From: G965261055 sp965261055 [NCBI: Fibrobacteria bacterium]
Lineage (GTDB): Bacteria; Fibrobacterota; Fibrobacteria; UBA11236
Assembly: GCA_965261055.1 (NCBI GenBank)
Contig: OZ253440.1
Location: 1,116,001-1,180,000, forward strand
Direction: 5' to 3'
DNA: 64,000 bases
Below are positions 902-56,391 of this stretch, piece after piece (positions within the stretch are counted from its first letter, which is position 1; each line of letters starts with the position of its first letter). Below the pieces are notes generated by a model. That model saw only the letters and a program-made list of their open reading frames with translations. It was not told where the DNA came from and made no database searches. The translations under genes and the position numbers were made by a program.

Positions 902-905
902 AATA

Positions 906-1382
906 TTAAACTGTCTGTCTTAATTTTTCAAAAAACTCTTTACCTTTTTGTGATTTTAAACCATTTAAGGTTGCTCTAACAACATTAAAAGAGTTTGTAG
1001 ATCCAAAAATCTTAGTCAGTACATCTGTTACTCCAGCCAATTCTAACACAGCTCTAGCAGCTCCTCCAGCAATTACGCCTGTTCCTTTTGAAGCAGGTCT
1101 GATGAAAACATCAACCGATCCAAAGTGACCTGTTGTCTCATGAAAGATTGTACCATCCTCTAAGATTACTTCTTCTTGACTTTTGTAAGCATTTTCGGTT
1201 GCCTTTCGTACAGACTCTGAAACATCTTTGGCTTTTCCCTTACCAATGCCAATCATTCCTTTTTTGTTACCAATAACAACAAGGGCAGAAAAGGAAAAGC
1301 GACGACCACCCTTAACAACTTTAGTACAACGGTTGATTGTTACAACACGTTCTTGATATTCTTTTTCTTCGGTATCCAACAT
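906..1382 (-). CDS. rpsE: 30S ribosomal protein S5
   Basis: S5 (158 residues) is a small-subunit protein needed for decoding accuracy. The N-terminal double-stranded-RNA-binding region ([23 protein letters not shown]) is followed by the [15 protein letters not shown] motif and the C-terminal [14 protein letters not shown] helix with SxNxxNVVRAT-like residues ([16 protein letters not shown]). Length and order are standard. It lies 8 bases after rplR. Confidence 0.98.
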
Positions 1383-1390
1383 AACTCCTA

Positions 1391-1762
1391 TTAAAAATTT
1401 AGACCAGCTTCTCTTGCACCATCAGCAAAAGATTTAACTCGACCATGATATAAATAACCAGATCGATCAAAAACAATTTCATTGATTCCTTTGCTTTTCG
1501 CAATTTCACCCAATTGTTTTCCAAGAATAAAACTAGCTTCTACTTTGGTCTTACCTTTTAATAAAATTTTAGTATCCTTAACTACAGACGAAGAAGAACC
1601 TAAAGTAATCCCTTTTTCATCATCAACTAGTTGTCCATAAAAGTGATTTAAACTTCGGCGAACACACAGACGAGGCAGAGATTCTGTGCCCTGTATTTTT
1701 TGGCGGATATGTTGGCGCCTCGCTCTTCTAATTTTAACTCTTTCTTTTGCTATATCACGCAT
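1391..1762 (-). CDS. rplR: 50S ribosomal protein L18
   Basis: L18 (123 residues) binds 5S rRNA together with L5. The basic N-terminus (RVKIRRARRQHIRQKI), the PRLCVRRSLNHFYGQLVDD strand pair and the C-terminal FDRSGYLYHGRVKSFADGAREAGL block are the family signature. Position between rplF and rpsE is canonical. Confidence 0.98.
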   Translation of the reverse strand: MRDIAKERVKIRRARRQHIRQKIQGTESLPRLCVRRSLNHFYGQLVDDEKGITLGSSSSVVKDTKILLKGKTKVEASFILGKQLGEIAKSKGINEIVFDRSGYLYHGRVKSFADGAREAGLNF

Positions 1763-1778
1763 TTCAAAACCTTTCTAA

Positions 1779-2312
1779 TTATGATTTTTTAACTTCTTTT
1801 CTTCGGACTTCTTCACCAGCATATCGAACACCTTTACCTTTGTAAGGTTCTGGTTTACGGTACGATCTAATATTTGCTACTACTTGACCAACTTTTTGTT
1901 TATCAATTCCAGAAACTGTTAACTTGGTATTTCCGTCTAGTTTAAACTCAATATCTTCAGGAGGATCTAATAAAATTGGATGTGAATAACCTAATAAGAA
2001 ATTAAGACTCTTTCCTTTAAGTTCCACACGATAACCCACTCCAATAATTTCTAAAGATTTTGACCAACCTTCTGATAAACCTTGAATAATATTAGCCACA
2101 TTAGCACGAGTTGTACCATGTAAAGCTATCAACTTTTTAGCTTCAGTAGCTCGAGAAAAAGTAAGTTCATTCTCATTAATTTCAGCTTGAATTCCTTCTG
2201 GAAGAGTATAATCACTTTTGCCTTTTGGACCTTCAGCATAGAAGCGGTTTCCATTTATTTTTATTTTAACAGATGCAGGAACATTGATAAGTAGTTTTCC
2301 AACTCGAGACAT
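1779..2312 (-). CDS. rplF: 50S ribosomal protein L6
   Basis: L6 (177 residues) sits near the sarcin-ricin loop of 23S rRNA. It starts MSRVGKLLINVPASV, shows the duplicated L6 fold, and ends with the signature YKGKGVRYAGEEVRRKEVKKS. The start codon lies 3 bases downstream of nothing but the rplR-side spacer, and its stop is followed at 16 bases by rplR. The length is normal. Confidence 0.98.
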   Translation of the reverse strand: MSRVGKLLINVPASVKIKINGNRFYAEGPKGKSDYTLPEGIQAEINENELTFSRATEAKKLIALHGTTRANVANIIQGLSEGWSKSLEIIGVGYRVELKGKSLNFLLGYSHPILLDPPEDIEFKLDGNTKLTVSGIDKQKVGQVVANIRSYRKPEPYKGKGVRYAGEEVRRKEVKKS

Positions 2313-2315
2313 AAT

Positions 2316-2708
2316 TTACCAGACCTTTAAAAGAACTTCACCACCACAATTTTCTTGGCGAGCTTGGATATCTGTCAAAATCCCTTTAGAAGTCGACAGG
2401 ATTGTAAAACCTAAGCCATTAATTGTTTTAGGAATATTAACTAGTTTTGAATAATTTCTAAGACCAGGTTTACTTATTTTCTTCAATCCTTGTATTGCGG
2501 CAACAGATCCAATGTATTTCAACTTGATTTTAATCATATCTTGCTTATTATCTTCAATAACAAGAAACTTCTCTAAGAAACCCTCTCTAACTAATATTTT
2601 CAAGATTTCTATTTTTAAATTAGAAGCAGGTATTTGAACAGTTTTTTTATTCACTGCCAAAGCATTTCTAATTCGTGTTAATAAATCTGCAATAGGATCT
2701 GTATTCAT
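2316..2708 (-). CDS. rpsH: 30S ribosomal protein S8
   Basis: S8 (130 residues) organises the central domain of 16S rRNA and in many bacteria represses the spc operon. The chosen ATG at 2708 gives MNTDPIADLLTRIRNAL, the conserved N-terminus, and is preceded by AAGGAAAATT. A longer reading frame extends to 2726 but would overlap rpsN and adds a non-conserved leader. The C-terminal ILSTSKGILTDIQAR and GGEVLLKVW motifs are diagnostic. Confidence 0.97.
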   Translation of the reverse strand: MNTDPIADLLTRIRNALAVNKKTVQIPASNLKIEILKILVREGFLEKFLVIEDNKQDMIKIKLKYIGSVAAIQGLKKISKPGLRNYSKLVNIPKTINGLGFTILSTSKGILTDIQARQENCGGEVLLKVW

Positions 2709-2719
2709 AATTTTCCTTT

Positions 2720-2905
2720 CTACCAACTTGCTTTTTTAATTCCTGGAATCAATCCCTCTAGAGACATCTCTCTAAAGCAAATTCTGCAAATTCCAAATTT
2801 ACGCATAAAAGAACGAGGTCTTCCACAACGATTGCATCGATTATAACTGCGTACCGCAAATTTTGGTACTCTTTTATTTTTTTCTATTAATGATCTTTTA
2901 GCCAT
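2720..2905 (-). CDS. rpsN: 30S ribosomal protein S14, zinc-binding short form
   Basis: This is the 61-residue type Z S14. It has two CxxC pairs (CNRCGRP and CRICFRE) that bind zinc and replace the long N-terminal region of the zinc-free form. The [18 protein letters not shown] ending is typical. It sits between rplE and rpsH. Only this zinc-dependent form is visible here; a zinc-independent paralogue would have to lie elsewhere. Confidence 0.97.
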
Positions 2906-2915
2906 ATTTCTAAAC

Positions 2916-3464
2916 CTATTTTTTACGGAAAGGCATTCCTAATTGTTGTAAAAGTTCGCGACCACCTTCATCTGTATCCGAAGAAGTTACAAAAGAAATG
3001 TCCATTCCCATAATAGAAGGTATTTTGTCATATTCTATTTCCAAAAACACTATTTGCTCTTTAATTCCTAATGTGTAATTTCCACGACCGTCAAAACTTT
3101 TATTCGAAACTCCTTTAAAATCACGGACACGAGGTAAAGCCAAGTGAACTAGTCTATCAAAGAAATTCCACATACGATCACCTGTTAGAGTTACTTTTGC
3201 TCCAATTGGAGAACCTTCTCTAAGTTTAAAATTAGAAATCGCTTTCTTTGCTCGAGTAACAACAGCTTTTTGCCCTGTTATTTTGGTAAGAGTTTCTACA
3301 GCCTCATTCACTATTTTAGAGTTTTGAGTTGCTTTACCTACACCCATATTTAAAACAATTTTCTTCAAATGGGGAATAGACATTACATTAGACAATCCTA
3401 ATTTATTTTTTAAAAAGCCTTTGATTTCGTCTCTAAATTTTATTTTTGATTTTGATTCTATCAT
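2916..3464 (-). CDS. rplE: 50S ribosomal protein L5
   Basis: L5 (182 residues) binds 5S rRNA in the central protuberance. Recognisable blocks are [53 protein letters not shown], the [19 protein letters not shown] block and the final [18 protein letters not shown]. It follows rplX after a 32-base gap, the longest inside this part of the operon. Confidence 0.98.
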
Positions 3465-3496
3465 AATTTATTTCTTTTAAAATGACTTTTAAACTG

Positions 3497-3745
3497 CTAT
3501 CTATCCTTTTGTTCTTTCTTAGATACTTTCTCTAAGGCAACATTCGAAATATGTATAGGCATTTCTTTTTCAACAATCCCACCTTTCTCATTTTTAGGAC
3601 TAGGTTTTTCATGTTTTTTACAAAGATTAACACCTTGTACAAGTACTTTGTCTTTTTTAGGAAAAGATCTTAACACTTGACCCGTTTTTCCACGATTTTT
3701 ACCAGAGATAACTTTAACGATATCGTCTTTTTTGATAGAAGACAT
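3497..3745 (-). CDS. rplX: 50S ribosomal protein L24
   Basis: L24 (82 residues) is a primary 23S rRNA binder that starts 50S assembly. The KOW motif is clear in [20 protein letters not shown], followed by [16 protein letters not shown]. It is at the short end of the family range, lacking an extended C-terminus. The start overlaps the last base of rplN. Confidence 0.97.
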
Positions 3746-4113
3746 TATAGAACCTCCACTGCTAAAGAAATAATTTTAATATATTTTTTATCTCGTAATT
3801 CTCGAGCAACAGGGCCGAAAACACGTGTTCCTTTAGGATCGCCATTGTCATTAATAAGAACTATCGCATTCTCACTAAAACGAATTGCTGAACCTTGTGG
3901 ACGCTGAACCTCTTTTCTTGTACGGACAACAACAGCCTTTTGAACTGTCCCTTTTTTGATATTTCCATTAGGAATTGCCTTCTTAATTGTAACGACAATA
4001 ACATCACCAACTGAAGCATAACGACGACGAGAGCCTCCCAGTACTTTTATACATTGAGCCTCTTTAGCTCCCGAGTTGTCAGCTACGATCAATCTTGTTT
4101 CTACTTGAATCAT
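3745..4113 (-). CDS. rplN: 50S ribosomal protein L14
   Basis: L14 (122 residues) lies at the subunit interface. It begins [19 protein letters not shown] and ends with [19 protein letters not shown], both highly conserved. The [13 protein letters not shown] segment is the family signature. It is followed with a one-base overlap by rplX. Confidence 0.98.
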
Positions 4114-4121
4114 AATTTATA

Positions 4122-4397
4122 CTACTTTTTTAACTCAATAATTTTAATTAAACGCCAGCACTTCAATTTGCTTAAAGGTCTAGTTTCCATAATTTCAACT
4201 AAATCACCTTCTTTGGCTTCATTATTTTCATCATGAGCTTTCAACTTTTTAGTAAACGACATCATCTTACCATAAAGAGAATGTTTCTTTTTCTCAACAA
4301 ATGAAAGTGTGATGGTTTTGTCCATTTTATCACTGCAAACAATACCTTGACGCACTTTGCGATTTGAATTTCTTTGGGATGTATTCATTGTAACCAC
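4122..4397 (-). CDS. rpsQ: 30S ribosomal protein S17
   Basis: S17 (about 88-91 residues) is a primary 16S rRNA binder with an OB fold. The blocks [14 protein letters not shown] and the [21 protein letters not shown] ending are characteristic. A GTG start at 4397 is chosen because an AGGGGAG box lies 5 bases upstream; the in-frame ATG at 4388 would leave a 14-base spacing. The GTG overlaps the rpmC stop by one base. Confidence 0.96.
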
Positions 4398-4609
4398 TAT
4401 TTCTCCCCTAGGCTATCTTGCCATTGTTTTTCTTGAATTAATGTCTTAACTTGGGCTATTGTTCGTCTTTTCTCACGAATCAAAGATGTATTTTCTAGTT
4501 TGCCTAAAGAAAATTGAAATTTTGTATCAAAGTAATCTTTACGAAGATCAACCAATGTTGTTTGCAAATCCTCTTGCTTCATTTCTTTGTATTTACTTAA
4601 ATCTTTCAT
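4397..4609 (-). CDS. rpmC: 50S ribosomal protein L29
   Basis: L29 (70 residues) lies near the nascent-peptide exit and contacts trigger factor and SRP. It is a two-helix protein. The motif KMEDLQ-like [20 protein letters not shown] and the [20 protein letters not shown] block (compare L-x-N-x-x-x-I-R-x-x-R-R-x-I-A) are diagnostic. It lies between rplP and rpsQ as usual. Confidence 0.97.
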
Positions 4610-4612
4610 GTT

Positions 4613-5023
4613 CTAATCCTCAATGTCTACAAACATTGTTTTAACTGACAATTTTTGAGCAGCTATACGAAGTGCATCTTGGGCTACATCTTTTGAAACA
4701 CCTGCCATTTCAAACATAATACGACCTGGTTGCACAACTGCAACCCATCCTTCTGGATGACCTTTACCTTTACCTTGTCTTGTTTCAGCGGGCTTTCTCG
4801 TGTATGGTTTGTCTGGAAAAATACGAATCCAAACTTGTCCTCCTCGTTTTATTTTACGAGTCATAGCAACCCTAGCTGCTTCAATTTGACGAGATGTAAT
4901 CCAAGCAGCTTGTAGTGCCTTCATTCCGAAGTCACCAAAAGCAAGACTTGTTCCAGCTTTAGAAAGACCTTTCATTCTTCCTTTCTGGACTTTTCGTCTT
5001 CTTACTCTTTTTGGGCTTAACAT
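4613..5023 (-). CDS. rplP: 50S ribosomal protein L16
   Basis: L16 (136 residues) helps position A-site tRNA. Conserved parts visible are the start [19 protein letters not shown], the [20 protein letters not shown] helix, the [21 protein letters not shown] segment and [13 protein letters not shown]. Length is standard. It is separated from rpmC by 3 bases. Confidence 0.98.
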
Positions 5024-5034
5024 ATCCGTTCCTT

Positions 5035-5682
5035 TTAACGCACAGCTAGTGCTTGTTTCTTAATAATTTCACCTTTAAAAATCCAAACTTTAACGCCTAT
5101 TGTACCGTATGTTGTTTCAGACCTAGAGGTAGCATAATCTATTTCAGCTCGTAGAGTCTGTAGAGGCAAACGCCCCTCTCCATGCTTTTCAATACGAGCT
5201 ATTTCAGTACCACCCAATCGCCCACCCAATTGGATTTTAATTCCTTTAGCACCTAAACGCATTGTACCTGAAACTGTTTTCTTCATCACTCGACGAAAAG
5301 CCACACGCCTTTCTAATTGACGAGCAATATTGTCAGCAACTATCTGAGCATCTAATTCTGGGTGTTTGATTTCAACAATGTTAATATAAATTTCTTTACC
5401 AGTAAGATGTTGTATTTCCATTCTAAGACTCTCAACTTGCTCTCCTCTTTTCCCGATGATAACTCCTGGACGAAAAGAATGTAAGTTAACAGTTATTCTT
5501 TTTGTTGTTTTAGAAATGGCTATTTTAGATAAACCAACATTTTCCAAACGTTTTTTAAGATAGCGACGAATAACTATATCTTCATAAAGAAGATCTGCGA
5601 AATTCTTTTTAGCGAACCAAGTTGATTCCCATTTACGGAAAACACCAAGTCTAAAACCAATTGGATTTGTCTTCTGTCCCAC
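5035..5682 (-). CDS. rpsC: 30S ribosomal protein S3
   Basis: S3 (215 residues) lines the mRNA entry channel and has helicase-like function. It starts [20 protein letters not shown], carries the KH domain with [14 protein letters not shown], and has the C-terminal signature [15 protein letters not shown]. Length is typical of forms with little C-terminal extension. Confidence 0.98.
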
Positions 5683-5693
5683 AATACTCCTAC

Positions 5694-6038
5694 TTAGTTA
5701 CTAATTACAACAGTTAAATGACACTGTTTCTTTAAAATTTTAAACGCTCGACCTTGGGCTCTTGGGCGAATTCTTTTAATTGGCGCACCCTGATCTACTG
5801 TCATTTTAGTGATACTAAATTCACTTACTTCAACAGAAGTATTTAAATTTTGATCTTTCAAATTAGCTACTGCTGCTTTCAAAACTTTATCAACCATCTC
5901 AGCACTCTTCTTTTGTTGTTTCAATACAAACAGAGAAGCTAATACAGACTCAACAGGTTTATTTCGATACAAATCACACACTTGTCTCATTTTACGAGCA
6001 GAACATCTTAAATTCATAGCTTTTGCAATTGCTTCCAT
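5694..6038 (-). CDS. rplV: 50S ribosomal protein L22
   Basis: L22 (114 residues) extends a beta hairpin into the peptide exit tunnel. The SARKMRQVCDLYRNKPV block near the N-terminus and the hairpin sequence KIRPRAQGR-like RIRPRAQGRAFKILKKQCHLTVV are diagnostic. The ATG overlaps the last base of rpsS. Confidence 0.97.
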   Translation of the reverse strand: MEAIAKAMNLRCSARKMRQVCDLYRNKPVESVLASLFVLKQQKKSAEMVDKVLKAAVANLKDQNLNTSVEVSEFSITKMTVDQGAPIKRIRPRAQGRAFKILKKQCHLTVVISN

Positions 6039-6304
6039 TATTTATCCTTTTTGGAATGACCTCTATAGGTTCGCGTTGGAGCGAACTCACCTAATTTATG
6101 CCCGACCATATTTTCATTAATATAAACAGGTATAAAAGATTTTCCATTATGTACAGCAACAGTAATGCCTACAAATGTAGGAGAAATCATAGAGCGACGG
6201 CTCCAAGTCTTAATAGCTTTCTTTTTTGTTTCATTACTCATCACTTCTACTTTTTTAAGTAAGTGAGTATCAATGAAAGCACCTTTTTTGAGAGATCTAG
6301 TCAT
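6038..6304 (-). CDS. rpsS: 30S ribosomal protein S19
   Basis: S19 (88 residues) binds the head of the 30S subunit with S13. The sequence [19 protein letters not shown], the [12 protein letters not shown] block and the final [19 protein letters not shown] are the family signature. It is between rplB and rplV. Confidence 0.98.
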
Positions 6305-6315
6305 AATTAATTCCC

Positions 6316-7146
6316 TTATTTTCTTCTTTTTTTAGGTCGATGCGATACAATAAACTTTTCAGTACGCTTGTTACTACGCGTTTTCTTGCCTTTGGATTTT
6401 AATCCCCAAGGAGAAACTGGGTGTCCACCACCAGAAGTTTTACCTTCTCCACCACCCATTGGGTGATCAACTGGGTTCATCACAACACCTCTAACTTTAG
6501 GTCTTTTACCTAACCAACGAGAACGTCCTGCAGAACCACTTACAATTTTATTATGATCAATATTTCCAACACGACCTAAAGTTGCACAACATTGCGAAAA
6601 AATAAGTCTAACTTCTCCTGAAGGCAACTTAACATGAACATAGCGATCATCTTTACCTACAATTTCAGCCTTACCACCAGCAGAACGAACGAACTGTCCA
6701 CCTTTACCTGGTTTAAGTTCTATGTTATGAATACTTGTATTCAAAGGTATTTTAGAAAGAGGTAACACATTACCCACTTCAATTGCTGCAGTTTCTTTAT
6801 TTACAATTGTTTGTCCAACTGCAAAATTTTCAGCAGCAACAATATAACGATGTTGACCGTCTTCATAGCGAATTAATGCAATGTTACAAGAACGATTCGG
6901 ATCATATTCAATTGTTTCAATGACTGCAGGAATATTTTGACGATCTCGTTTAAAGTCAACAATACGGTACAATCTTTTATGTCCACCACCACGACGACGC
7001 ATTGTGATAACACCGCGATTATTACGACCAGCTTTTTTACTCAAACCTTCACACAAAGGTTTATATGGCTTATTAGTCGTAATTTCTGCAAATTCAGAAG
7101 TTTGTTTATAACGTAGAACTGGAGTTAATGGTCTATAGGTTTTCAC
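6316..7146 (-). CDS. rplB: 50S ribosomal protein L2
   Basis: L2 (276 residues) is central to subunit association and the peptidyl-transferase centre. Visible marks are the [22 protein letters not shown] block, the RNA-binding SH3-like domain and the C-terminal [19 protein letters not shown] loop containing the conserved His (DHPMGGGEG). The stop of rplW lies directly before its ATG. Confidence 0.98.
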
Positions 7147-7431
7147 TTACACTCCTTCAAATTCTGAGATTGTATCACCTTTTTTTAAGCAAACATAAGC
7201 TTTCTTCCAAGAAGAGCAACGACCATAATCGCGACGCACTTTTTTAAGTTTACCTTGATAATTAGAGATATTAACCGATTCAACTAAAACATTAAAATGA
7301 CTTTCTATTATTTTTTTAATTTCTTGTTTATTAGCAGACCGATCCACTTTAAAAACATACTGATTATGTTTATATCGAACTTCTGATGACTTTTCGGTAA
7401 ACAAAGGGGAGTTTATAAGGTTAATTGCCAT
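7147..7431 (-). CDS. rplW: 50S ribosomal protein L23
   Basis: L23 (94 residues) sits at the tunnel exit and docks trigger factor and SRP. The ATG at 7431 (MAINLINSPLFTEKSS) is chosen: it has an AAGGAG box 7 bases upstream and the conserved TEKS motif soon after. A longer frame to 7455 reads through this ribosome binding site. The gene start overlaps the rplD stop by 11 bases. Confidence 0.95.
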   Translation of the reverse strand: MAINLINSPLFTEKSSEVRYKHNQYVFKVDRSANKQEIKKIIESHFNVLVESVNISNYQGKLKKVRRDYGRCSSWKKAYVCLKKGDTISEFEGV

Positions 7432-8059
7432 TAGAATCTCCTTCAGTAAAAGCACGCATGGCTTCTTGAGTGAAAATAATTTGATCCATCAAAATAACAT
7501 CATAAACATTTAATAAATCTATAGAACAAACACAGACATTTTTTAGGTTACGAGCAGACAACATCAATTGCTCATTCAAACTTGAAACTAAAACACATTT
7601 TCTTTCAGAATCTTTAAAGTTAGCTTTGTTCAACAAACCCTGCAATACTTTTGTTTTGACTTCAGATAAGTTAAACTTTTCAAAGATTGATATTTTTGAA
7701 TCCACAGCTTTTTCAGTCAAAGCTCCTCTCAAAATTTTTTGTTTTAACTTACGATTTATTTTGCGTGTATAGTCTCTAGGTTCAGCTCCGTGTGCTTTTC
7801 CACCTCGAACCCAAATAGGGGATGTATTAGATCCAGATCTAGCACGACCTGTTCCTTTTTGTTTCCAAGGCTTCTTACCCGTTCCACTAACTTCACTTCG
7901 ACCTTTCGTTTTAGCAGTACCTTGACGAGCATTACCTCTTTGAACTGTAATTCCGAAATGAATTAAACCTGCATCAACAGGACTATTAAAACAAGCTTCA
8001 TCTAAATCAACCTGTGATTTAAGAGCACCTTCCGCTGTATATAAATTTGCTTTAGTCAT
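7421..8059 (-). CDS. rplD: 50S ribosomal protein L4
   Basis: L4 (212 residues) has a globular domain and a long loop in the exit tunnel. The loop is clear: RQGTAKTKGRSEVSGTGKKP followed by KQKGTGRARSGSNTSPIWVRGG. In many bacteria L4 represses the S10 operon. Its start overlaps the rplC stop by one base, and its end overlaps rplW. Confidence 0.98.
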   Translation of the reverse strand: MTKANLYTAEGALKSQVDLDEACFNSPVDAGLIHFGITVQRGNARQGTAKTKGRSEVSGTGKKPWKQKGTGRARSGSNTSPIWVRGGKAHGAEPRDYTRKINRKLKQKILRGALTEKAVDSKISIFEKFNLSEVKTKVLQGLLNKANFKDSERKCVLVSSLNEQLMLSARNLKNVCVCSIDLLNVYDVILMDQIIFTQEAMRAFTEGDSNGN

Positions 8060-8679
8060 TATTTCGTCTTTTGGATCATTACAACACCTTGTTTTGCCCC
8101 AGGAACAGCTCCTTTAACAAAAAGAAGGTTTTTTTCAGCATCAACTTTAAAAACTTTCAAGTTTTTAACTGTTGTTTTTGCATCCCCATATTGCCCTGGC
8201 ATTTTTTTACCTGGAAAAACACGAGAAGGAGAAGAACAAGCTCCAATTGCACCTGGTGCTCTTTTATTACGAGAACCATGAGTCATTGGACCACAAGAGA
8301 AACCGTATCTTTTGATCGTTCCTGAAAAACCATGTCCCTTACTATAACCTGTTACTTGAACTTTAGCTTCGCCTTCAAAGATAGAAATATTCCATGTATC
8401 ACCTATTTTCACATCTTGTGATACATCAAAAGAAAACTCTTTTATCCGACGAAAAAGTTTAATGTTATTTTTTTTGAAAAAACCTATTTCAGCATTTGTA
8501 AGATGCTTCTCTTTCGCAGAAAAACAACCACCTTGAACAGCTGTGTAATTATTTTTTTCAACTGATTTAAGACCAACAACAGTTGTATCTTCCGCTCGAA
8601 GGACAGTTACAGGAGTAGCTATTCCTCCAGCATCAAACAAACGGGTCATACCTATTTTTTTAGCAAGAATTCCATTCAT
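8059..8679 (-). CDS. rplC: 50S ribosomal protein L3
   Basis: L3 (206 residues) initiates 50S assembly and reaches the peptidyl-transferase centre. The start MNGILAKKIGMTRLFDAGG, the VQVTGYSKGHGFSGTIKRYGF block and the GSRNKRAPGAIGACSSPSRVFPGKKMPGQYG loop (split here in the description of three adjoining motifs) are conserved. It follows rpsJ by 7 bases. Confidence 0.98.
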   Translation of the reverse strand: MNGILAKKIGMTRLFDAGGIATPVTVLRAEDTTVVGLKSVEKNNYTAVQGGCFSAKEKHLTNAEIGFFKKNNIKLFRRIKEFSFDVSQDVKIGDTWNISIFEGEAKVQVTGYSKGHGFSGTIKRYGFSCGPMTHGSRNKRAPGAIGACSSPSRVFPGKKMPGQYGDAKTTVKNLKVFKVDAEKNLLFVKGAVPGAKQGVVMIQKTK

Positions 8680-8686
8680 AATTTAC

Positions 8687-8995
8687 CTATGCTTTAATAT
8701 CAACTTCAACCCCAGCAGGCAACTCTAAACGCATTAAAGCATCCACAGTTTGAGGGTTAGCGTTTAAAATATCTATCAATCTTTTGTGCGTTTGTATTTC
8801 AAACTGCTCTCTAGATTTTTTATTAACATGCGGAGAACGATTTACCGTATAAATTGTTTTTTTGGTTGGCAAAGGAACTGGACCAGCTATTTTAGCTCCA
8901 GCATTCTTAGTAACTGTAACAATATCTTTTGTAGACTTATCAATCATGTTATAGTCAAAAGACTTTAATCTAATTCTTATTCTTTGTTCTGCCAT
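8687..8995 (-). CDS. rpsJ: 30S ribosomal protein S10
   Basis: S10 (102 residues) is the first gene of the S10 operon and also the NusE subunit of antitermination complexes. It begins [19 protein letters not shown] and contains [20 protein letters not shown] and [16 protein letters not shown], all diagnostic. A 192-base spacer separates it from the EF-G-like gene upstream, so an S10 promoter and leader probably lie there. No tuf gene is present next to it. Confidence 0.98.
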
Positions 8996-11277: not shown

Positions 11278-11299
11278 TTTAGTCACTCTTTAGTCACTC
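11278..11299. repeat. Perfect tandem 11-base repeat at the stop of the BIG2 gene
   Basis: TTTAGTCACTC occurs twice without a gap, 11278-11288 and 11289-11299. The second copy overlaps the stop codon of the BIG2 lipoprotein gene. The period of 11 bases is about one helical turn. Similar short tandem pairs lie at 13472-13491, 18733-18755 and 36155-36174, three of the four close to or inside BIG2 genes. Confidence 0.8.
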
Positions 11300-12713
11300 A
11301 ATTCGTTACCGTAATAATTACTATCGCTGTTTTATCACTGTCAAAAACTGAAGTCGCCGTAATTGTAGCACTGCCTAGAGCAACTCCCGTAACAACACCA
11401 TCTATAACTGTTGCAATAGACATATTACTTGAGGACCACCTTACATTCTGCGAAGCACCTCCTTCAACCTCTACCATCACAGTTAAGCTTATATTTTCTT
11501 CTAAATTTATACTCGTAGTTGTGCTCAGCAATGTCACTACTATTACCTTTGGTTCTATAACATTAACTGTAGCTTCTGCTAATTTTGTAGGATCAAAAAC
11601 AGATCTCGCTGTAATCGTTGCCCGCCCTTGAGACAAACCAGTTACAATGATACTGTCAGCACTCATAGTTATGCTTACAATGCTACTATCACTAATACTA
11701 TAAACCACACTAGAGTTAGCTTGATTCAATATCAGCACAGTTAAATTTAATATTTGAGTCTCTCCAACAACAACAGAAGATCCCGTTGGCTCCAATATAA
11801 CATCGGTTACAATAGGAGGTAAGATAATAAGAACTGAAACTGTATCTGCTTTAGATGTATCAACTACAGAGGAAACAATGATATTAACTCTAGTTTCTCC
11901 AGTTGCCACTACACCAACAGCAGTTATTAAACCGTTTGCACTCACTGTTGCTAGACTAGTATCACTACTCATCCATACCACAGAAGTATCAACACGTCCA
12001 CCCTCTATCTCAACATCTACATCGAGAAGGAGAGCATCTGAAACTGTAATCATATATGGTCCATTTTGTCTGATCTCAACTGATGTAACACTTGGTAGAG
12101 GCTTCACTATAAGTAAAAAAGAATCTGATTTTGTCGCGTCTGCTCTTGCAGTCGCTATGATAGTAACTTCGCCCTTCTTTTTGGCAGTAAGCATTCCTCT
12201 TATGTTAACATCAGCTATATCATTGTCCGTACTATGCCAAGACACATCAGTTGAGACATTACCCACAACGCCAACAGATACAACTAATTGTTCTGTTACT
12301 CCAGCTGTTAATTCTAAACTATCATCTAAAACTTGTCCTGCAATATTAACAGCAGTGACTCTACTCACTTCTGTAACTTGGATTGTAATATTAGCTGATT
12401 TAGTTATGTCAAGTCTAGAAGCTGCTGTAATAACGACCATGCCTCTAGACTGAGTAACAATAAGTCCACTATCATTTACCGTAGCAATATCACTATTATC
12501 ACTAAACCAAATTAAAGAAGTATCTGGTGTTCCCTCTTTAACAAAAGAAACTCTAACCTGACTTTGTTCTCCCAATCTAATATTTGCATCACTTACTGTT
12601 AAATCAAAAGAAGTTATTGTTGAAGATACTGGGTCTGTTGTTGATTTACAGTTTAAAAACACTAAACTGAGAATAAAAAGAATGGTTAAATTTCCCAAAT
12701 ACAAAGATTTCAT
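11298..12713 (-). CDS. Lipoprotein with five BIG2 immunoglobulin-like repeats
   Basis: A 471-residue secreted protein. The ATG at 12713 is preferred over 12728 because GGGGAA lies 8 bases upstream and it leads straight into a Lys start and a hydrophobic segment ending FLNCKS, a lipobox with Asn before the lipidated Cys. The rest is five repeats of about 85-90 residues, each ending in the BIG2 pattern S-x-x-x-x-I-A-T-V followed by G-L-V-T-x-x-x-x-G and then I-x-A-T-S-x-x-D-x-T-K. BIG2 domains are found in intimins and other bacterial surface proteins and often take part in adhesion. The gene stands alone, with a terminator-like hairpin downstream. No catalytic domain is visible. Function beyond a surface-exposed spacer or adhesin cannot be stated. 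Confidence 0.85.
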   Translation of the reverse strand: MKSLYLGNLTILFILSLVFLNCKSTTDPVSSTITSFDLTVSDANIRLGEQSQVRVSFVKEGTPDTSLIWFSDNSDIATVNDSGLIVTQSRGMVVITAASRLDITKSANITIQVTEVSRVTAVNIAGQVLDDSLELTAGVTEQLVVSVGVVGNVSTDVSWHSTDNDIADVNIRGMLTAKKKGEVTIIATARADATKSDSFLLIVKPLPSVTSVEIRQNGPYMITVSDALLLDVDVEIEGGRVDTSVVWMSSDTSLATVSANGLITAVGVVATGETRVNIIVSSVVDTSKADTVSVLIILPPIVTDVILEPTGSSVVVGETQILNLTVLILNQANSSVVYSISDSSIVSITMSADSIIVTGLSQGRATITARSVFDPTKLAEATVNVIEPKVIVVTLLSTTTSINLEENISLTVMVEVEGGASQNVRWSSSNMSIATVIDGVVTGVALGSATITATSVFDSDKTAIVIITVTN

Positions 12714-13074
12714 ATCAAAATTCCCCATGTTTATATAAAAAGTTATGTTAGAACAGATTTATCATCAATAATAGAATATTTGTTTTTAAAGTTAAACTTT
12801 ATTTCAAAATAATTCATTTTATAAGGTGCAAATCCTTCTCAAACTTTATTCTCGGTCACTAACCACATATATTAGAATATTAGAATTTTGCATTTCCGCT
12901 AATGTTGAATTATAAGTAAGATAGAACCATGCATTAGAAAACCCATGTAAATATGCTTTTAAAGCACATAAATTCGTTAATAATTGTTACTACTAATGGA
13001 AAAGAAGCAAGAGAAAGATTTAAACAGGGTTTAAGTATAGAGTAATTAAAAAGTGAATAGAAATAAATAAAAGG

Positions 13075-18787: not shown

Positions 18788-21700
18788 TTATAATACTGGA
18801 ACTCCAAATATTTCTATCTCACGAAACCCTTGCCAACCCCCTTCAAAAGTAATCTTCACTTCATCAAATTGAATATTTTCGACTGCAGTAAATGGGACAT
18901 CCTCTTCATGTATCTCCCTAAGTTGCCAGAAACGACTAGTCACGAACGATACCTGTACAACTCCTTCCAAAATAAACTCAACATCAGAATCTTGTAACCC
19001 ATTATTAGCACCGCGATTGTAGTATATAAGCTTACCCTCAGTATAAGTTCTATCCAAAGTAAATGTTAACGTATGTTCGTTAGAATTCCTTATTGCTACT
19101 TGTCCATCATTATCCAGACCCGGATCATCAGGATGCTTACCTGTCTTCAATTTATTACCATCTGTTATACGAGCTATATTCTCGGCAGCGGTACCTGAAG
19201 AAGCCCAATTACCCGCAACTAGCGTTGTGGTTATTACAGATATATCTGAAATTAATACTGGTCTAGATCTCACAACAATCAGTTTTTCTGCATACTTCGT
19301 AGGATCAAAAACAGAGGTGACCCGAATCATTACTTCTCCTCCTGTTATTCCCCTCACAAATCCAATACTATCAACTGTAGCTATACTACTATCACTTGAA
19401 GACCATACAACAGAATCTGTTGCCCCATCTACAGCAACTATTTCATAGCTAAAATCTGGATCACTCTGACTACCAGAATTATAAATAGTATCTAATCTTG
19501 ACTCAATAGTTATAGATGTTATCGCTGGAATAATCTCTCTTAAAACTGTGACTGGTACAGTGACAATAAATCCACCTACTGCTACTTTTATTTCTATCGC
19601 ACCCTCTGATAAAAAGGTAACCAAGCCACTTTCATCTACTGAAGCTTTCGTAATATCTGTCGACGTATAAGTCACTGAACCAGCGGTATGGTCTGGCGGT
19701 GATACCGTTACAATTAACTGCTGTTGCTGTGGAGAACTACTTATCGCAGTGTCTACTAAATCTTGTGGAGTAACTGATAAACCTGTCACTGCTACTGCAT
19801 TGTTCACTCTAATAACAATAATATCTAATTCTTCTGGTGTTACAATAGAGGTTGCCTTAATCGTGACCTCTCCTACTGATATACCTGTAACAATCCCTGA
19901 ATTATTAACAGTAGCTATAGATGTAGCTGAAGAGCTCCAAGTTAATAACGTAGATGCTCCTCTCTCTTCTGTAACTGTTGCTGTTAAAGTTAATCTTCCT
20001 CCTACTTCAATATTAGAGGAGGAGGGGGAATCTATGCTCACTGATGTTACTTCAGCTGCCATTAGATCTGGAGAAACTGTAATTGTTATACTACCTGACT
20101 TAGTGCTATCAAATGTAGATGTCGCTGTAATCATTCCTGATCCTGATCCAACACCTGTCACTAAACCTGTAGCACTAACTGTTAAAACACTCGGCAAAGC
20201 ATTCGTTGACCATTCTACACTTTCTGATGCTCCCGAAATAACGTCAACAATAGATTGCAACTGTGTCGTTCCATTAACAGCAAGCACTACGCTACCACCA
20301 ACTGAAATTACTTGAACGCTTGTCACTGAGGCAGGTTCTAATAATACTGGAGCTCCCAATATTCCTACCTCATACAACGCTTGCCAACCCCCTTCAAAAG
20401 TAATCTTCACTTCATCAAACTGAATACTAGGTACTATAGTAAATGGAACACCATCCCCATGTATCCGCCTAAGTTCCCAGTAACGATCAACCATAATCGA
20501 ATCCTGTACAACTCCTTCTAAGATAAAATCAATAGTAGCATCTTCTAACCCATTACTAGTACTGTAGTATATAAGGATACCATCAGTATAAGTTCTATCC
20601 AAAGTAAATGTTAACGTATGTCCATCAGCATTCCTTATTGATACTTCTCCGTCATTATTACCAGTGGTCAATGTATCACCATCTGTTATACGAGCTATAT
20701 TCTCGGCAGCGGTACCTGAAGAAGCCCAATTACCCGCAACTAGCGTTGTGGTTACAGATAAATCTGAAATTAATTCTGGTCTAGATTTTATATGAATTGG
20801 TATTTCTGCATACTTCGTAGGATCAAAAACAGAGGTGACCCGAATTATTGCTTTTCCTCCTGTTACTCCCCTCACTACTCCAGTACTATCAACCATAACT
20901 ATACTACTATCACTTGAAGACCATACAACAGAATCTGTTGCCCCATCTACAGTAACTATTTGATGGCTAAAATCTGGATCACTCTGCCTACCATAATTAT
21001 AAATAGTATCTAATCTTGAATCAATAGTTATAGATGTTATCGCTGGAATAATCTCTCTTAAAACTGTGACTGGTACAGTGACAATAAATCCACCTACTGC
21101 TACATTTATTTCTATCGCACCCTGTGATAAAAAGGTGACCAAGCCACTTCCATCTACTGAAGCTTTCGTAGTATCTGTCGACGTATAAGTCACTGTACCA
21201 GCGGTATGGTCTAGCGGTGATACCGTTACAGTTAACTGCTGTGGAGAACCACTTATCGCATTGCCTACTAAAACTTGTGGAATAACTGATAAACCTGTCA
21301 CTGATACTGGAACGTTGTTCACTACTATAATAATATCTATATTATCTAATTCTTCTGGTGTTACAATAGAGGTTGCCTTAATCGTGACCTCTCCTACTGA
21401 TATACCTGTAACAATCCCTGAATTAACAGTAGCTATAGACGTATCTGAAGAGCTCCAAGTTAATAACGTAGATGCTCCTCTCTCTTCTGTAACTGTTGCT
21501 GTTAAAGTTAATCTTCCTCCTACTTCAATATTAGAGGAGGAGGGGGAATCTATCCTCACTGATGTTACTTCAGCTGCCATTCGATCTAGAGAAACTGTAA
21601 TTGTTATACTACCTGACTTAGTGTTATCAAATGTAGATGTCGCTGTAATCATTCCTGATCCTGATCCAACACCTGTCACTAAACCTGTAGCACTAACTGT

Positions 21701-22192
21701 TAAAACACTCGGCGAAGCATTCGTTGACCATTCTACACTTTCTGATGCTCCCGAAATAACGTCAACAATAGATCGCAACTGTGTCGTTCCATTAACAGCA
21801 AGCACTACGCTACCACCAACTGAAATTACTTCAACGCTTGTCACCGATGGTAATGCTTCTACTGTAATCTCGGATTCAGAAAAAATTGTATCTGTAACTG
21901 TCGATATTGCCTTAATCTGTACAGAACCAACTGCTTTCCCAACTACAACTCCACTACTATCAACCGTTGCTATACTTGTATCAGAAGAATACCAGACAAC
22001 TGTAGTATCTGCATTTCCTGTAACAGTCACCGTTGCTGTTAATGTTGTACTCGACCCTTGTTGAATTGTCACAGATTTTAGATTCAATTCTATAAAATCC
22101 ACTGAAATTGGTGTTGCAACTGTCGGTGGGGCATCTCCACAGTTGACAATAAGAATCACTATCAGTAATGTAAACAAATTTAAGATACCCAT
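18788..22192 (-). CDS. Large BIG2 lipoprotein with two discoidin-like domains
   Basis: An 1134-residue surface lipoprotein. The ATG at 22192 has an AAGGGAG box and leads into a hydrophobic segment ending LIVNCGD, a lipobox with Asn before Cys. One unique BIG2-like domain is followed by a five-module block that occurs twice: four BIG2-like domains of about 85 residues, then about 150 residues resembling a discoidin (F5/8 type C, galactose-binding-like) domain, with the run GTAAENIARITDG, then HTLTFTLDRTYT, then IQFDEVKITFEGGWQ and a final EIxIFG or EVGILG. BIG2 is usually structural or adhesive, and discoidin-like domains often bind sugars, so carbohydrate or surface attachment is a reasonable inference. 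The gene stands alone. The block duplication is nearly identical at DNA level, hence recent. Confidence 0.85.
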   Translation of the reverse strand: MGILNLFTLLIVILIVNCGDAPPTVATPISVDFIELNLKSVTIQQGSSTTLTATVTVTGNADTTVVWYSSDTSIATVDSSGVVVGKAVGSVQIKAISTVTDTIFSESEITVEALPSVTSVEVISVGGSVVLAVNGTTQLRSIVDVISGASESVEWSTNASPSVLTVSATGLVTGVGSGSGMITATSTFDNTKSGSITITVSLDRMAAEVTSVRIDSPSSSNIEVGGRLTLTATVTEERGASTLLTWSSSDTSIATVNSGIVTGISVGEVTIKATSIVTPEELDNIDIIIVVNNVPVSVTGLSVIPQVLVGNAISGSPQQLTVTVSPLDHTAGTVTYTSTDTTKASVDGSGLVTFLSQGAIEINVAVGGFIVTVPVTVLREIIPAITSITIDSRLDTIYNYGRQSDPDFSHQIVTVDGATDSVVWSSSDSSIVMVDSTGVVRGVTGGKAIIRVTSVFDPTKYAEIPIHIKSRPELISDLSVTTTLVAGNWASSGTAAENIARITDGDTLTTGNNDGEVSIRNADGHTLTFTLDRTYTDGILIYYSTSNGLEDATIDFILEGVVQDSIMVDRYWELRRIHGDGVPFTIVPSIQFDEVKITFEGGWQALYEVGILGAPVLLEPASVTSVQVISVGGSVVLAVNGTTQLQSIVDVISGASESVEWSTNALPSVLTVSATGLVTGVGSGSGMITATSTFDSTKSGSITITVSPDLMAAEVTSVSIDSPSSSNIEVGGRLTLTATVTEERGASTLLTWSSSATSIATVNNSGIVTGISVGEVTIKATSIVTPEELDIIVIRVNNAVAVTGLSVTPQDLVDTAISSSPQQQQLIVTVSPPDHTAGSVTYTSTDITKASVDESGLVTFLSEGAIEIKVAVGGFIVTVPVTVLREIIPAITSITIESRLDTIYNSGSQSDPDFSYEIVAVDGATDSVVWSSSDSSIATVDSIGFVRGITGGEVMIRVTSVFDPTKYAEKLIVVRSRPVLISDISVITTTLVAGNWASSGTAAENIARITDGNKLKTGKHPDDPGLDNDGQVAIRNSNEHTLTFTLDRTYTEGKLIYYNRGANNGLQDSDVEFILEGVVQVSFVTSRFWQLREIHEEDVPFTAVENIQFDEVKITFEGGWQGFREIEIFGVPVL
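18800..21840. repeat. Internal tandem duplication, unit about 1.5 kb
   Basis: Two copies of a block of about 1.5 kb follow each other inside the large BIG2 gene, roughly 18800-20330 and 20330-21840. Matching points, for example the shared CTGCATACTTCGTAGG at 19288 and 20806, are 1518 bases apart. Long runs are identical, with scattered substitutions and a few whole-codon insertions or deletions that keep the frame. Both copies include four BIG2-like domains and one discoidin-like domain. Confidence 0.85.
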
Positions 22193-22828
22193 GAATTCTC
22201 CCTTTTAAGTCAAAAATTTCATAATCTAAAAAGAATTAGTAATATTCTATAGCTCTGTCAAGTATAAAAAAAATGAAAAATACTAAATTTATTTTCCCAA
22301 AATCGCTTATACTTTTTAAATCATTTGTAGATTTACTAAAAAATGGATATATTATAGTATTCTAACGGTACAAAGTTGGAATTGCTACGGACTGGAAATG
22401 TAGATTTTATCTTTTTTCACAAAAACACTCCAGAGCTATTTTTAAAAGCATTATAATTAAGGAAAAACAACAAAAACCAAGAGGTTTCTGTTGTTAATAT
22501 AGAGAGATTGCAAAAGATCTGCATAATCACTTTGAAAATAAGCAAGAATGGGTAAAAGCTACTTTAGATAATATTACACAGAGAATAGAAAGTATTCAAA
22601 TAAAAGTTTTCTAATTGAGAACTCATCTATATAATCTCCCAATGTTTTTTATTGAGAGTACAAACATTTGAATAATTTATTTATTTTGATTAATATACCA
22701 AATTTTCTATTTATTATTTTCATCATTTCTCAATATCTATTAGAATTGAACTACAATAAAGCTACATTTCTACTTAAAATTTACGATTTATTCATATCCG
22801 AAAAATCTCACTTACTTAAAAGATACCC
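22193..22828. other. Intergenic region with a hairpin and a gene relic
   Basis: This 0.6 kb space separates the start of the BIG2 gene from the start of the helicase gene, so promoters for both should lie here. It holds the hairpin at 22466-22495 and, right after it on the plus strand (22497-22613), an open stretch of 38 codons without a start codon that reads like the end of a protein (EIAKDLHNHFENKQEWVKAT region). No family was recognised. Confidence 0.45.
22466..22495 (+). other. Strong hairpin, 13-base stem with one mismatch
   Basis: AACAACAAAAACC at 22466-22478 pairs with GGTTTCTGTTGTT at 22483-22495 around an AAGA loop, with one A-C mismatch. There is no T run after it, so it is not a standard intrinsic terminator in the plus direction. 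It could be an mRNA structure or a remnant of a mobile sequence end. Confidence 0.55.
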
Positions 22829-34680: not shown

Positions 34681-35718
34681 TTAAGTTACTTGCAAAATCA
34701 AGTATTTTTTAGCTACTGCTTGTACAGTATTTACTGCCATCGCATTTCCTGTTTGTCTCAAAATATGAGCCTCGGCAATATTTTCCTTTGCTTTTTGTGC
34801 TAATTTTTTGGGAAAATCTTGTAAAAGTAAAGATTCATAACCAGACAATTTTTAAAATCTCCCATTTTTTATATACAAAACTCCATGTCTTCCAAACCTC
34901 AGTGTTGGAACTTTGTTATAATACAACCTCAGATCTGATTACCTTGTATCTAAAACAAGATATTCTCTTTCTCGTAATTTTTCTATTGAGTATTTCTTTT
35001 GGTTGTATTTGTTACTAAGATATTTCAAAAAAGTTATATATGCTTGTTCTTTTTCATGAAAGATAGTCTCATTATCATTAATCAAAAAATCTTCTACATT
35101 TGTAATTTGTTCATTGCCATTTGGGAAAGAAAATTTTGTGCTATCTTTTAACAAATCTTTTCTAATTCCTACAAAATAGATTCTTTCTCTCACCTAGGGA
35201 ACTCCATAATTTATACTATTTAAAACTTCCTACTCAACATAATAACCAGCTTGATCAAGAGCTCCTAAGATAATTTTAAAGATCGTCCCTTATCATGATA
35301 TACTAGGCTTTTTACATTTTCCAAAAGAACAAATTTTACACTTTTTTCTTCATTATCTTTATCAGATAATAAATTATTTCACCTCTTTCATCTTCCATTC
35401 CTTTTCTTTCCCCAATCACAGAAAAAGTCTGACAAAGAAAACCTCTAACCATTATATCAAAATTAGGTAGATTATCTGTATCTATTTTTGTTAAGTCTCC
35501 TTAATTTTTTCATCTTCCCCATGAAATAATCTACATGTTTTTTTTGCATTTTTATTAATCTCAGAAAACTCAAAACATTTAATCCCTAGATCGTCCAATG
35601 CAAATCTTCCACCTCCAACACCTACACAAAAATCAATAAAAGTTAATGTTTTTATAAGCTTTAAATTTGGGAATTACTTACTTAATACTCCAAAGTTCTG
35701 TGTTAAGTTGAAGTGCAT
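34681..35718 (-). pseudogene. Decayed C5-cytosine DNA methyltransferase
   Basis: A full-length C5-cytosine methyltransferase can be read across frames on the minus strand, but with several in-frame stops and at least two frameshifts. Motif I reads FIDFCVGVGGGRFAL. Motif IV reads RGFLCQTFSVIGERKG, where the invariant Pro before the catalytic Cys is Leu. Motif VI-like LLENVKSLVYHDKG, motif VIII RERIYFVGIRKD, then DTR-stop-SDLRLYYNKVPTLR and motif X QTGNAMAVN follow. Two stops fall where the family has Gln (GVPQ, DTRQ), consistent with C-to-T changes. The ATG at 35718 is followed by an early TAA. Length over all (about 1 kb) equals a normal gene, so this is decay by point changes, not deletion. 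The target sequence cannot be told. Confidence 0.9.
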
Positions 35719-36025: not shown

Positions 36026-36756
36026 CTATTCAGTATCAGATCCAAAAATTGCTATTTCATAAAAAGTAGCCAAGGCAATAGAAAAAATTGTTATCACTTT
36101 ATTAAAAACAGTTAGTGGATTAGGATCCACTGTAATATCCTTTGTCACATTTGAAATTGTCACTAATTGTCACTGTTTCAATAACAGTATATCATTCATA
36201 AACTGTATAGTACTACCATTCATAGCTAAAATAGCATTACCCTGATTACGACCATAATAGGTATAAACACCATTATTATAAATCTTAGAAAAGCTACGTG
36301 TAATCGTGGCATTAGTTATTTACAAATGTGTACTTGAAACCTTTCATTACCACTAGTATCCGCTGTTTAAACAGTAGAGAAATTAAACACTATTGTATAA
36401 GACAGACCCTATTGAAATGTTTTCTAATACTGTAATCTCTAACTCTGCTTTTTAGTGGGATCTGCTGTAGAAGTCACTGTTATTCTGATTATTCCTACTC
36501 TTATTCCAGTGACTTACCCACTAGAACTTACTGTAGCTATTGTGCCTGCACTACTTCTATCTCACTGCTTGTTGGTAGCTTCAGATAGTGATACTGTCGC
36601 TATTACTGTTGACGAGTCTCTCAATACTATTCTTACTGCAAGATTATCAACACTAACACTACTTACTGGAATCGGTGATGCGTTTTCACCTGAATCAAAT
36701 AGGTTACAATTGACAATGGTTAATGCTAGTAATATAAATATAATTAGCTTAATCAT
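36026..36756 (-). pseudogene. Decayed BIG2/discoidin-like lipoprotein
   Basis: An ATG at 36756 opens MIKLIIFILLALTIVNCNLFD, a signal peptide with a VNC lipobox. A single BIG2 domain follows, broken by a frameshift and a stop: the expected IATVSSSGLVTG reads IATVSSSG-stop-VTGIRVG, then ITVTSTADPTKK. After more stops and shifts, a segment with FSKIYNNGVYTYYGRNQGNA and a final FYEIAIFGSDTE corresponds to the discoidin-like end of the large BIG2 protein (YTEGKLIYY and EIEIFG). The gene is thus a decayed smaller relative of 18788-22192. Confidence 0.85.
36155..36174. repeat. Perfect tandem 10-base repeat
   Basis: AATTGTCACT occurs at 36155-36164 and again at 36165-36174, inside the decayed BIG2 gene. 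It may be a slippage event. It resembles the tandem pair at the stop of the other BIG2 gene (GTCACTC). Confidence 0.7.
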
Positions 36757-55689: not shown

Positions 55690-56391
55690 ATGAAATATTT
55701 AATTTTCTTAGTATTGTTAATCATATATAATTGTGACTTGTCATTTCTGCCAGACGAATATGAACTTGTTCTAGACATTCCTTATGAGATAAACATCAAT
55801 GACACAGTCACACTTAAAGCACAATTAGTTGGTATAAACTCTCGAAATATTTTGAATGTAAATGATACACTACTAACATGGTCATGGGAAAAACCTCTTG
55901 ACTCACTCTCTAGTATCAACGATTCACTAGCACTGTCAGGATATCCATTGGACCCCATTGACGCATTGTCTTTTGCTAGAAAAGCTAAAATTATAGGAAC
56001 TCATAATTTAATAGCTGTAAATACTGGTGTGATTAATGTAATCGCTCACATAAAAAGCACAGATTCCCATGTAATTATTGGAAATACAACGACTAAACAA
56101 AGAGTTATTATCACTGAAGGATTTATATTACCAGTTCTAAATCAAAATATTACAATTACTGGAAATAACCAAGTCACTGTAAATAATCAAATTTATTTAA
56201 CTGTAATAGCAAACAATGTTGAAAATGCGAATAGTAGAAAATTTATATGGGTATCAAGTAACCCTTCTATTGCTACTGTTAATGCCAATGGAACAGTTCA
56301 AGGTATTTCAATAGGAAATGCCGTTATTAAAGCAACTACTCTTGATGAAGATTTATTTTTTAATTCATTCACAATAACAGTTATAGAATAA
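55690..56391 (+). CDS. Small lipoprotein with one BIG2 domain
   Basis: A 233-residue exported protein. The signal peptide ends LIIYNCDLS, an Asn-Cys lipobox. An N-terminal domain of about 150 residues with beta-rich pattern is followed by one BIG2 domain (about 152-233; ITITGNNQVTVNNQ, then NPSIATVNANGTVQGISIGNAVIKATT). It ends just after the domain. AAAGGTAGA precedes the ATG. Relation to the larger BIG2 proteins in the window is clear from the domain, but it has no discoidin-like domain. Confidence 0.8.
   Translation: MKYLIFLVLLIIYNCDLSFLPDEYELVLDIPYEININDTVTLKAQLVGINSRNILNVNDTLLTWSWEKPLDSLSSINDSLALSGYPLDPIDALSFARKAKIIGTHNLIAVNTGVINVIAHIKSTDSHVIIGNTTTKQRVIITEGFILPVLNQNITITGNNQVTVNNQIYLTVIANNVENANSRKFIWVSSNPSIATVNANGTVQGISIGNAVIKATTLDEDLFFNSFTITVIE

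What the first reader, a model, noticed from the sequence alone, without database searches (positions are those of the whole stretch)
18788..22192. BIG2/discoidin lipoprotein grown by a recent 1.5 kb tandem duplication
Five modules (four BIG2-like, one discoidin-like) are present twice, with matching points 1518 bases apart, long identical stretches and only in-frame indels. This is a recent expansion under selection for the frame. Together with intact relatives (11298, 55690) and a decayed one (36026), it suggests a fast-evolving family of surface lipoproteins, possibly adhesins.
Basis: partly seen in the sequence, partly recalled or inferred. Interest (0 to 1): 0.7.

Follow-up and report, generated by a model that had tools for sequence, protein, structure and literature searches.

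The report
Surface lipoprotein with doubled stalk unit
A bacterium from a poorly sampled lineage carries a gene for a long, probably surface-exposed protein whose stalk-and-tip unit has been copied head to tail, with the stalk parts staying nearly identical while the tip parts have drifted apart; this looks like an ordinary route to longer adhesin-like proteins, with some unusual details.

Summary
ORF 18788-22192 (-), 1134 aa, has nine Big_2 domains: one lead domain plus a five-module unit (4 Big_2 + a C-terminal domain, CTD) present twice, 1518 nt apart, with in-frame indels only. Two parts of the reading change. First, the CTD is not shown to be discoidin: no Pfam, NCBIfam or PDB match, no profile match to F5/8-C sequences although 12 of 14 single controls matched, and both AlphaFold models failed (pLDDT 33 and 36). 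Second, the copies are neither evenly recent nor visibly constrained: divergence climbs 2.6, 3.5, 5.8, 8.7, 14.5% from first to last module, and dN/dS estimates are 1.4-2.3, significance depending on the model. Best reading: a lipid-anchored Big_2-stalk protein lengthened by one in-frame tandem duplication, after which recombination kept the stalk end alike while the CTDs diverged. Leptospira LigA/LigB is the closest precedent. The decayed relative at 36026-36756 probably carries CTD remnants. New member of a known kind.

The parts
18788..22192 (-). whole gene, 1134 aa Big_2-repeat lipoprotein-like protein
22139..22192 (-). N-terminal signal/lipobox-like segment, aa 1-18 (ends ...LIVNC; lipidation Cys inferred at aa 18)
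   Evidence: sequence; lipobox reading is inference, no signal-peptide predictor available
21848..22111 (-). Big_2 module 1 (single copy), about aa 28-115
   Evidence: Pfam best stretch aa 31-99; module profile
20330..21847 (-). unit A (aa 116-621): Big_2 modules 2-5, C-terminal domain A, linker LEPA
18791..20329 (-). unit B (aa 622-1134): Big_2 modules 2'-5' and C-terminal domain B
20342..20782 (-). C-terminal domain A (CTD-A), internal copy, 147 aa; no known family found
18791..19264 (-). C-terminal domain B (CTD-B), terminal copy, 158 aa; no known family found
11298..12728 (-). intact relative, 476 aa, five Big_2 stretches, lipobox-like N-terminus, no CTD match
36026..36756 (-). decayed relative: lipobox-like start, weak Big_2 remnants, weak collinear CTD remnants in two adjacent ORFs (36173-36319, 36029-36169), interrupted by stops and frame changes
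55690..56391 (+). smaller relative, 233 aa, one Big_2 near the C-terminus, lipobox-like N-terminus

Best explanation
The gene encodes a secreted protein tied to the membrane by an N-terminal lipid (inferred), with a rod of Big_2 immunoglobulin-like domains that ends in a distal CTD of unknown fold, probably the binding part (inferred). An in-frame tandem duplication of the last five modules turned a Big_2 x5 + CTD protein into Big_2 x9 with two CTDs, one mid-rod and one at the tip (anatomy shown; direction of change inferred). Afterwards the two units diverged unevenly: modules 2-3 are almost identical and the CTDs are the most different. I think recombination between the units (gene conversion or unequal crossing-over) has kept the stalk end alike, while the CTDs changed under relaxed or diversifying selection. 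The result is a longer rod with two slightly different tips.
For: Nine Big_2 stretches and unit layout. Divergence rises in order M2 2.6%, M3 3.5%, M4 5.8%, M5 8.7%, CTD 14.5% (chance of that exact order 1/120, my arithmetic). Silent differences among codons with unchanged amino acid: 5 of 305 in modules 2-5 against 7 of 100 in the CTD, p = 0.012, so age as well as constraint seems to differ. Differences are clustered (gap variance 422 against null mean 144, highest 296 in 5000 shuffles; longest identical run 109 nt, p = 0.011), and silent differences lie close to replacement differences (p = 0.003 overall, 0.032 in the CTD, 0.090 in modules 2-5), as patchwork recombination would give. 0-fold sites differ more than 4-fold sites (8.7% against 4.0% from unit A, one-sided p = 0.005; 8.8% against 3.7% from unit B, p = 0.003). 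The nucleotide-level spacings of all seven repeat pairs are multiples of 3.
Against: The 4-fold-site contrast between modules and CTD is p = 0.027 counted from unit A but p = 0.25 from unit B. dN/dS above 1 is significant with equal codon frequencies (2.34, p = 0.0007) but not with F3x4 (1.44, p = 0.15), and no single region is significant. The shuffles assume evenly placed changes, so varying constraint alone could also break them, and clusters break the independence that the other tests assume. Only one sequence of the gene is known, so conversion tracts cannot be dated or given a direction. No binding partner, localisation or expression data; the CTD has no known fold.
Confidence: 0.55

Rival explanations
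1. One duplication with no later recombination: all modules have the same age, and the gradient comes only from differing constraint, the stalk being constrained and the CTD free to change.
For: The 4-fold contrast is weak counted from unit B (p = 0.25); silent-only codons are few (12); the silent-near-replacement test is not significant in modules 2-5 (p = 0.090).
Against: Codons with unchanged amino acid carry more silent changes in the CTD (7 of 100 against 5 of 305, p = 0.012), and silent changes sit beside replacement changes overall (p = 0.003). dN/dS before the CTD is not below 1 (1.17 and 2.25 for two stretches, neither significantly different from 1), so constraint is not visible there.
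Confidence: 0.25
2. The second unit, or its CTD end, came from a diverged allele or a paralogue elsewhere in the genome by recombination, so the CTD difference is older than the duplication.
For: A paralogue that probably has the same CTD type exists in decayed form at 36026-36756; CTD divergence is the highest.
Against: No donor with long DNA similarity in the window: BLASTN hits outside the gene with E up to 0.06 are 30-82 nt and 71-87% identical, all in the Big_2 relatives. The whole genome is not held, so this tests only the window.
Confidence: 0.15
3. Assembly artefact: two alleles or strain variants of one gene joined head to tail.
For: The window's source is unknown; a metagenome assembly could join strain variants.
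Against: The junction is an open frame with its own linker, unit B lacks a lead module and signal of its own, and divergence is graded by module.
Confidence: 0.05

Closest known systems
Leptospira Lig proteins (LigA, LigB; PMC7821625, passages read)
   Same: Big_2-repeat proteins; [quoted passage not shown]
   Different: There two genes, tandem on some chromosomes, share the identical part; here the two units lie in one gene. LigB's C-terminal extension (putative Big_5) was not compared with this CTD.
Periscope proteins (PMC8201768, passages read)
   Same: Tandem folded repeats with high DNA identity that form a rod; intragenic recombination is proposed to change repeat number.
   Different: Named for variable-length stalks between strains, not testable here; here the repeat is a five-module unit that includes the distal domain.
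Fibrillar-adhesin-like proteins (PMC9210967, passages read)
   Same: Stalk of repeated domains (Big_2 counted among stalk domains), anchor at one end, often an unannotated region at the other.
   Different: The passages treat Firmicutes and Actinobacteria; here the anchor is an inferred lipid and the possible adhesive domain is unidentified.
F5/8 type C (discoidin) domain, PF00754
   Same: By eye only: a DG motif and an E-[IV]-x-I-x-G ending (family motif recalled).
   Different: No Pfam hit and no profile match.

Membership tests
Big_2 (PF02368) | profile match over the curated cut-off | tested here: met
   244.3 bits against cut-off 22.8, 9 stretches
F5/8 type C / discoidin (PF00754) | profile match of the CTD | tested here: not met
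   No PF00754 hit listed for either CTD with E up to 5 asked. hhalign probability 0.17%, 5 aligned columns, against 14 F5/8-C sequences (14 of the 16 matches, L120 and L124 not used). Controls: 12 of 14 single F5/8-C sequences matched the others at 73% or more; the 2 that did not (6.5%, 11.6%) are L114 and L115, themselves under Pfam's cut-off. So a very diverged member would be missed.
F5/8 type C / discoidin (PF00754) | galactose-binding-like beta-sandwich fold | tested here: inconclusive
   AlphaFold pLDDT 33.1 and 35.9; too low for a fold search, none run
Bacterial lipoprotein | signal segment ending in a lipobox Cys | tested here: inconclusive
   By eye: hydrophobic segment...LIVNC, Cys 18; no Lys/Arg before it and Asn at -1 is not the canonical lipobox (recalled); no predictor available
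Periscope proteins | highly identical tandem folded repeats | tested here: inconclusive
   Between the units, modules 2-3 are 96-97% identical in DNA, but M4 94%, M5 91% and CTD 85%; the gene's self-hits other than unit against unit are short (at most 76 nt, 71-80% for those with E below 0.001)
Periscope proteins | repeat number varies between strains | not testable with these tools
   only one sequence of this gene is known
Fibrillar adhesins | known adhesive domain | tested here: not met
   no adhesive-domain hit in Pfam or NCBIfam; binding itself cannot be tested here
Lig family | number of Big_2 domains (LigB 12) | tested here: not met
   9 Big_2 domains; no Leptospira sequence was compared

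The most novel reading that the evidence does not exclude
A single-gene counterpart of LigA/LigB: ongoing recombination within one surface lipoprotein gene keeps its stalk modules identical with a polarity that fades towards the tip, while two copies of a new, otherwise unknown binding domain diverge by replacement changes inside one molecule, giving a two-tip adhesin whose length and specificity can change quickly, in a lineage with no close sequenced relative found here.
Probability: 0.25. Interest if true: 0.5.

Novelty: new member of a known kind. Interest (0 to 1): 0.33.

Why it matters
If the reading holds, it is a clean one-gene example of how stalk proteins lengthen while their tips diversify, with a stepwise divergence gradient that makes recombination against selection testable from a handful of further alleles. 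The CTD might also be a new domain family, so far seen only here and, weakly, in one decayed neighbour.

Tried and rejected
Discoidin reading: tested by Pfam, PDB profile search (nothing at E up to 10), NCBIfam (CTD-B alone and the whole protein less its first residue), PHROGs (CTD-A had one E 0.075 match, CTD-B none) and profile-profile comparison; none supports it. A first version was wrong because I had not reverse-complemented minus-strand loci; it was discarded.

CTD relatives: viral contigs 0 confirmed of 154 pattern matches; plasmids none with CTD-B at E up to 0.1; genomes 0 of 121 at E 0.01, 1 of 345 at E 0.004, 7 of 199 at E 0.002-0.007 (about 2 would be expected at E 0.01), 0 of 199 at E 0.001 (19 of the 20 genomes it lists were also listed) and 0 of 240 at E 0.001. 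Of the 8 weak hits, three (L127, L129, L132) lie in frames of about 2000 aa that look SprA-like (recalled; L127 and L132 read); L125, L128 and L131 looked like unrelated proteins in the frame printed; L126 has a stop inside; L130 was not printed in its right frame. I treat all as chance. None of these searches had a positive control. Phages: unit B matched 8 records, all over its residues 145-266 or 145-253, Big_2 territory, not the CTD.

Diversity-generating retroelement: thought unlikely; substitutions are of all 12 types and I noticed no reverse transcriptase among the ORFs, but made no dedicated search. Antisense ORFs 19749-20315 and 21261-22064 (+) are taken as by-products of codon content (inference). 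The first statistics (on a MAFFT protein alignment) were replaced because that alignment misplaced one gap; one search had given p = 0.012 for replacement excess and p = 0.003 for the silent contrast. Rfam: 0 matches in the window at gathering scores. No fold search was run, because both models were too poor.

Organism: the SufB scan kept 80 of 197 relatives, best segment 72% identical or less. rpS3 matched in 25 of 30 genomes searched, at most 57%. A FastTree of 15 ribosomal proteins from 20 of those genomes puts the window on its own long branch; the node joining it to Bacteroidota, Marinimicrobia and Marinamargulisbacteria has support 0.85, the next one, with Gemmatimonadota, 0.43. The iqtree step left no tree and that script ended in an error. 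Phylum not settled.

Full report
What is there. The minus-strand ORF 18788-22192 encodes 1134 aa. Pfam finds nine Big_2 stretches (E 6.7e-74). The layout is: hydrophobic N-terminus ending in LIVNC; Big_2 module 1; unit A (aa 116-621: Big_2 modules 2-5 and CTD-A); unit B (aa 622-1134: modules 2'-5' and CTD-B). The units start exactly 1518 nt apart; indels move other parts to 1512-1551, always by multiples of 3.

How the copies differ. On a codon alignment (499 codons) there are 118 differences: 86 codons with replacement, 12 silent only. By module: M2 7 of 273 nt (2.6%), M3 9 of 255 (3.5%), M4 15 of 258 (5.8%), M5 24 of 276 (8.7%), CTD 63 of 435 (14.5%). Seven internal indels are whole codons (the alignment allows no others, so one search is the independent check). 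Silent changes at codons with unchanged amino acid: 5 of 305 before the CTD, 7 of 100 in it, p = 0.012; silent changes lie nearer to replacement changes than shuffled positions do (p = 0.003 overall, 0.032 in the CTD, 0.090 before it); differences are strongly clustered. At 4-fold sites alone the module/CTD contrast is p = 0.027 counted from unit A and p = 0.25 from unit B.

Selection. GY94 maximum likelihood gives dN/dS 1.44 with F3x4 (p = 0.15) and 2.34 with equal frequencies (p = 0.0007); by region (F3x4) 1.17, 2.25 and 1.04, none significant. A mutation-only expectation at four base compositions and three transition biases gives ratios of 1.37 to 1.86, with one-sided p from 0.004 to 0.11 for substitutions (paths chosen in favour of silent changes) and 0.0031 or less for codons. 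What is safe is that no purifying constraint on residues is visible; positive selection is suggested, not shown. The frame is nevertheless kept.

The C-terminal domain. Pfam lists nothing for CTD-A and one E 0.2 chance match for CTD-B; PDB sequences give nothing at E up to 10; for the CTDs given alone, NCBIfam (CTD-B) and PHROGs (both) give nothing better than E 0.075. Profile comparison with 14 F5/8-C sequences gave 0.17% probability, no better than reversed controls (0.20% and 0.09%), while 12 of 14 single F5/8-C sequences were recognised; the two failures are the two of the 14 that lie under Pfam's own cut-off. Two structure predictions, on 2 and on 4 rows, had pLDDT 33 and 36. The discoidin label is therefore unproven; a very diverged member is not excluded.

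The family in the window. 11298-12728 (-) has five Big_2 stretches and 55690-56391 (+) one. In the decayed gene, weak Big_2 remnants appear at 36451-36735 (E 0.017-0.024); a profile of this gene's own modules gave only E 0.44 there. When the CTD profile was run over all 829 stop-to-stop ORFs of 30 aa or more in the window, the next two hits after the gene itself were the adjacent ORFs 36173-36319 (E 0.017) and 36029-36169 (E 0.55), in the right order along the profile. Each E-value is weak alone; adjacency and order make the link likely. So the CTD probably belongs to a Big_2 family that predates the duplication.

How it most likely works. The N-terminal lipid anchor, Big_2 rod and distal domain resemble the plan of stalk-type surface proteins (PMC9210967 and PMC8201768, passages read). 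Duplication lengthened the rod from five to nine Big_2 and doubled the distal domain. The nearest precedent for 'identical stalk end, different far end' is LigA/LigB, where a review infers gene conversion (PMC7821625, passages read). Shown here: anatomy, gradient, clustering, frame. Inferred: lipidation, surface location, binding, recombination as the cause of the gradient.

Organism and limits. No whole genome is held. The nearest SufB among the 80 loci kept is 72% identical over its best segment, and 15 ribosomal proteins reach at most 50.2% mean identity with 20 sampled genomes; the tree leaves the window on a long branch of its own. No record titled Fibrobacterota was among the 80 loci. 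Without alleles or reads, conversion, selection and copy number cannot be settled. The literature searches (open-licence PubMed Central only; listings seen, passages read in three papers) showed no report of this case.

Noticed in passing
34942-35673 (-): Broken C-5 cytosine DNA methyltransferase: three separate ORF pieces match PF00145 in order along the profile (E 7.4e-5, 1.5e-13, 2.9e-4, the last under the cut-off).
   Followed up: partly
starts of the ORFs at 18788-22192, 11298, 55690, 39260 and the decayed one at 36756: In these five lipoprotein-like starts, picked by eye, the residue before the presumed lipidation Cys is Asn (4) or Gln (1), unlike the canonical lipobox (recalled); perhaps a lineage habit.
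   Followed up: no
19749-20315 and 21261-22064 (+): Long antisense ORFs (188 and 267 aa) inside the repeats, probably a by-product of codon content.
   Followed up: no
41017-42168 (+): Sub-threshold NCBIfam match to BamG (94.4 bits, cut-off 250), next to a 585-aa lipoprotein-like ORF (39260-41017) with no convincing family.
   Followed up: partly
273-8995 (-): Ribosomal protein cluster at most 50.2% identical on average to 20 sampled genomes: a deep, poorly sampled lineage.
   Followed up: partly
22466-22495 (-): 13-pair hairpin followed by T-rich sequence in the gap upstream of the gene (3 such sites found in the region, 1.9 expected), with no intact gene seen before it.
   Followed up: no
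18788-22192 (-): PHROGs phage structural families with Ig domains match the Big_2 part (best E 9.5e-74), and 8 phage records match unit B's Big_2 part, as expected for Big_2. The gene's overall GC is 38.9% against 32.6% for the window, but its GC3 (0.223) lies within that of eight other genes (0.188-0.258).
   Followed up: partly
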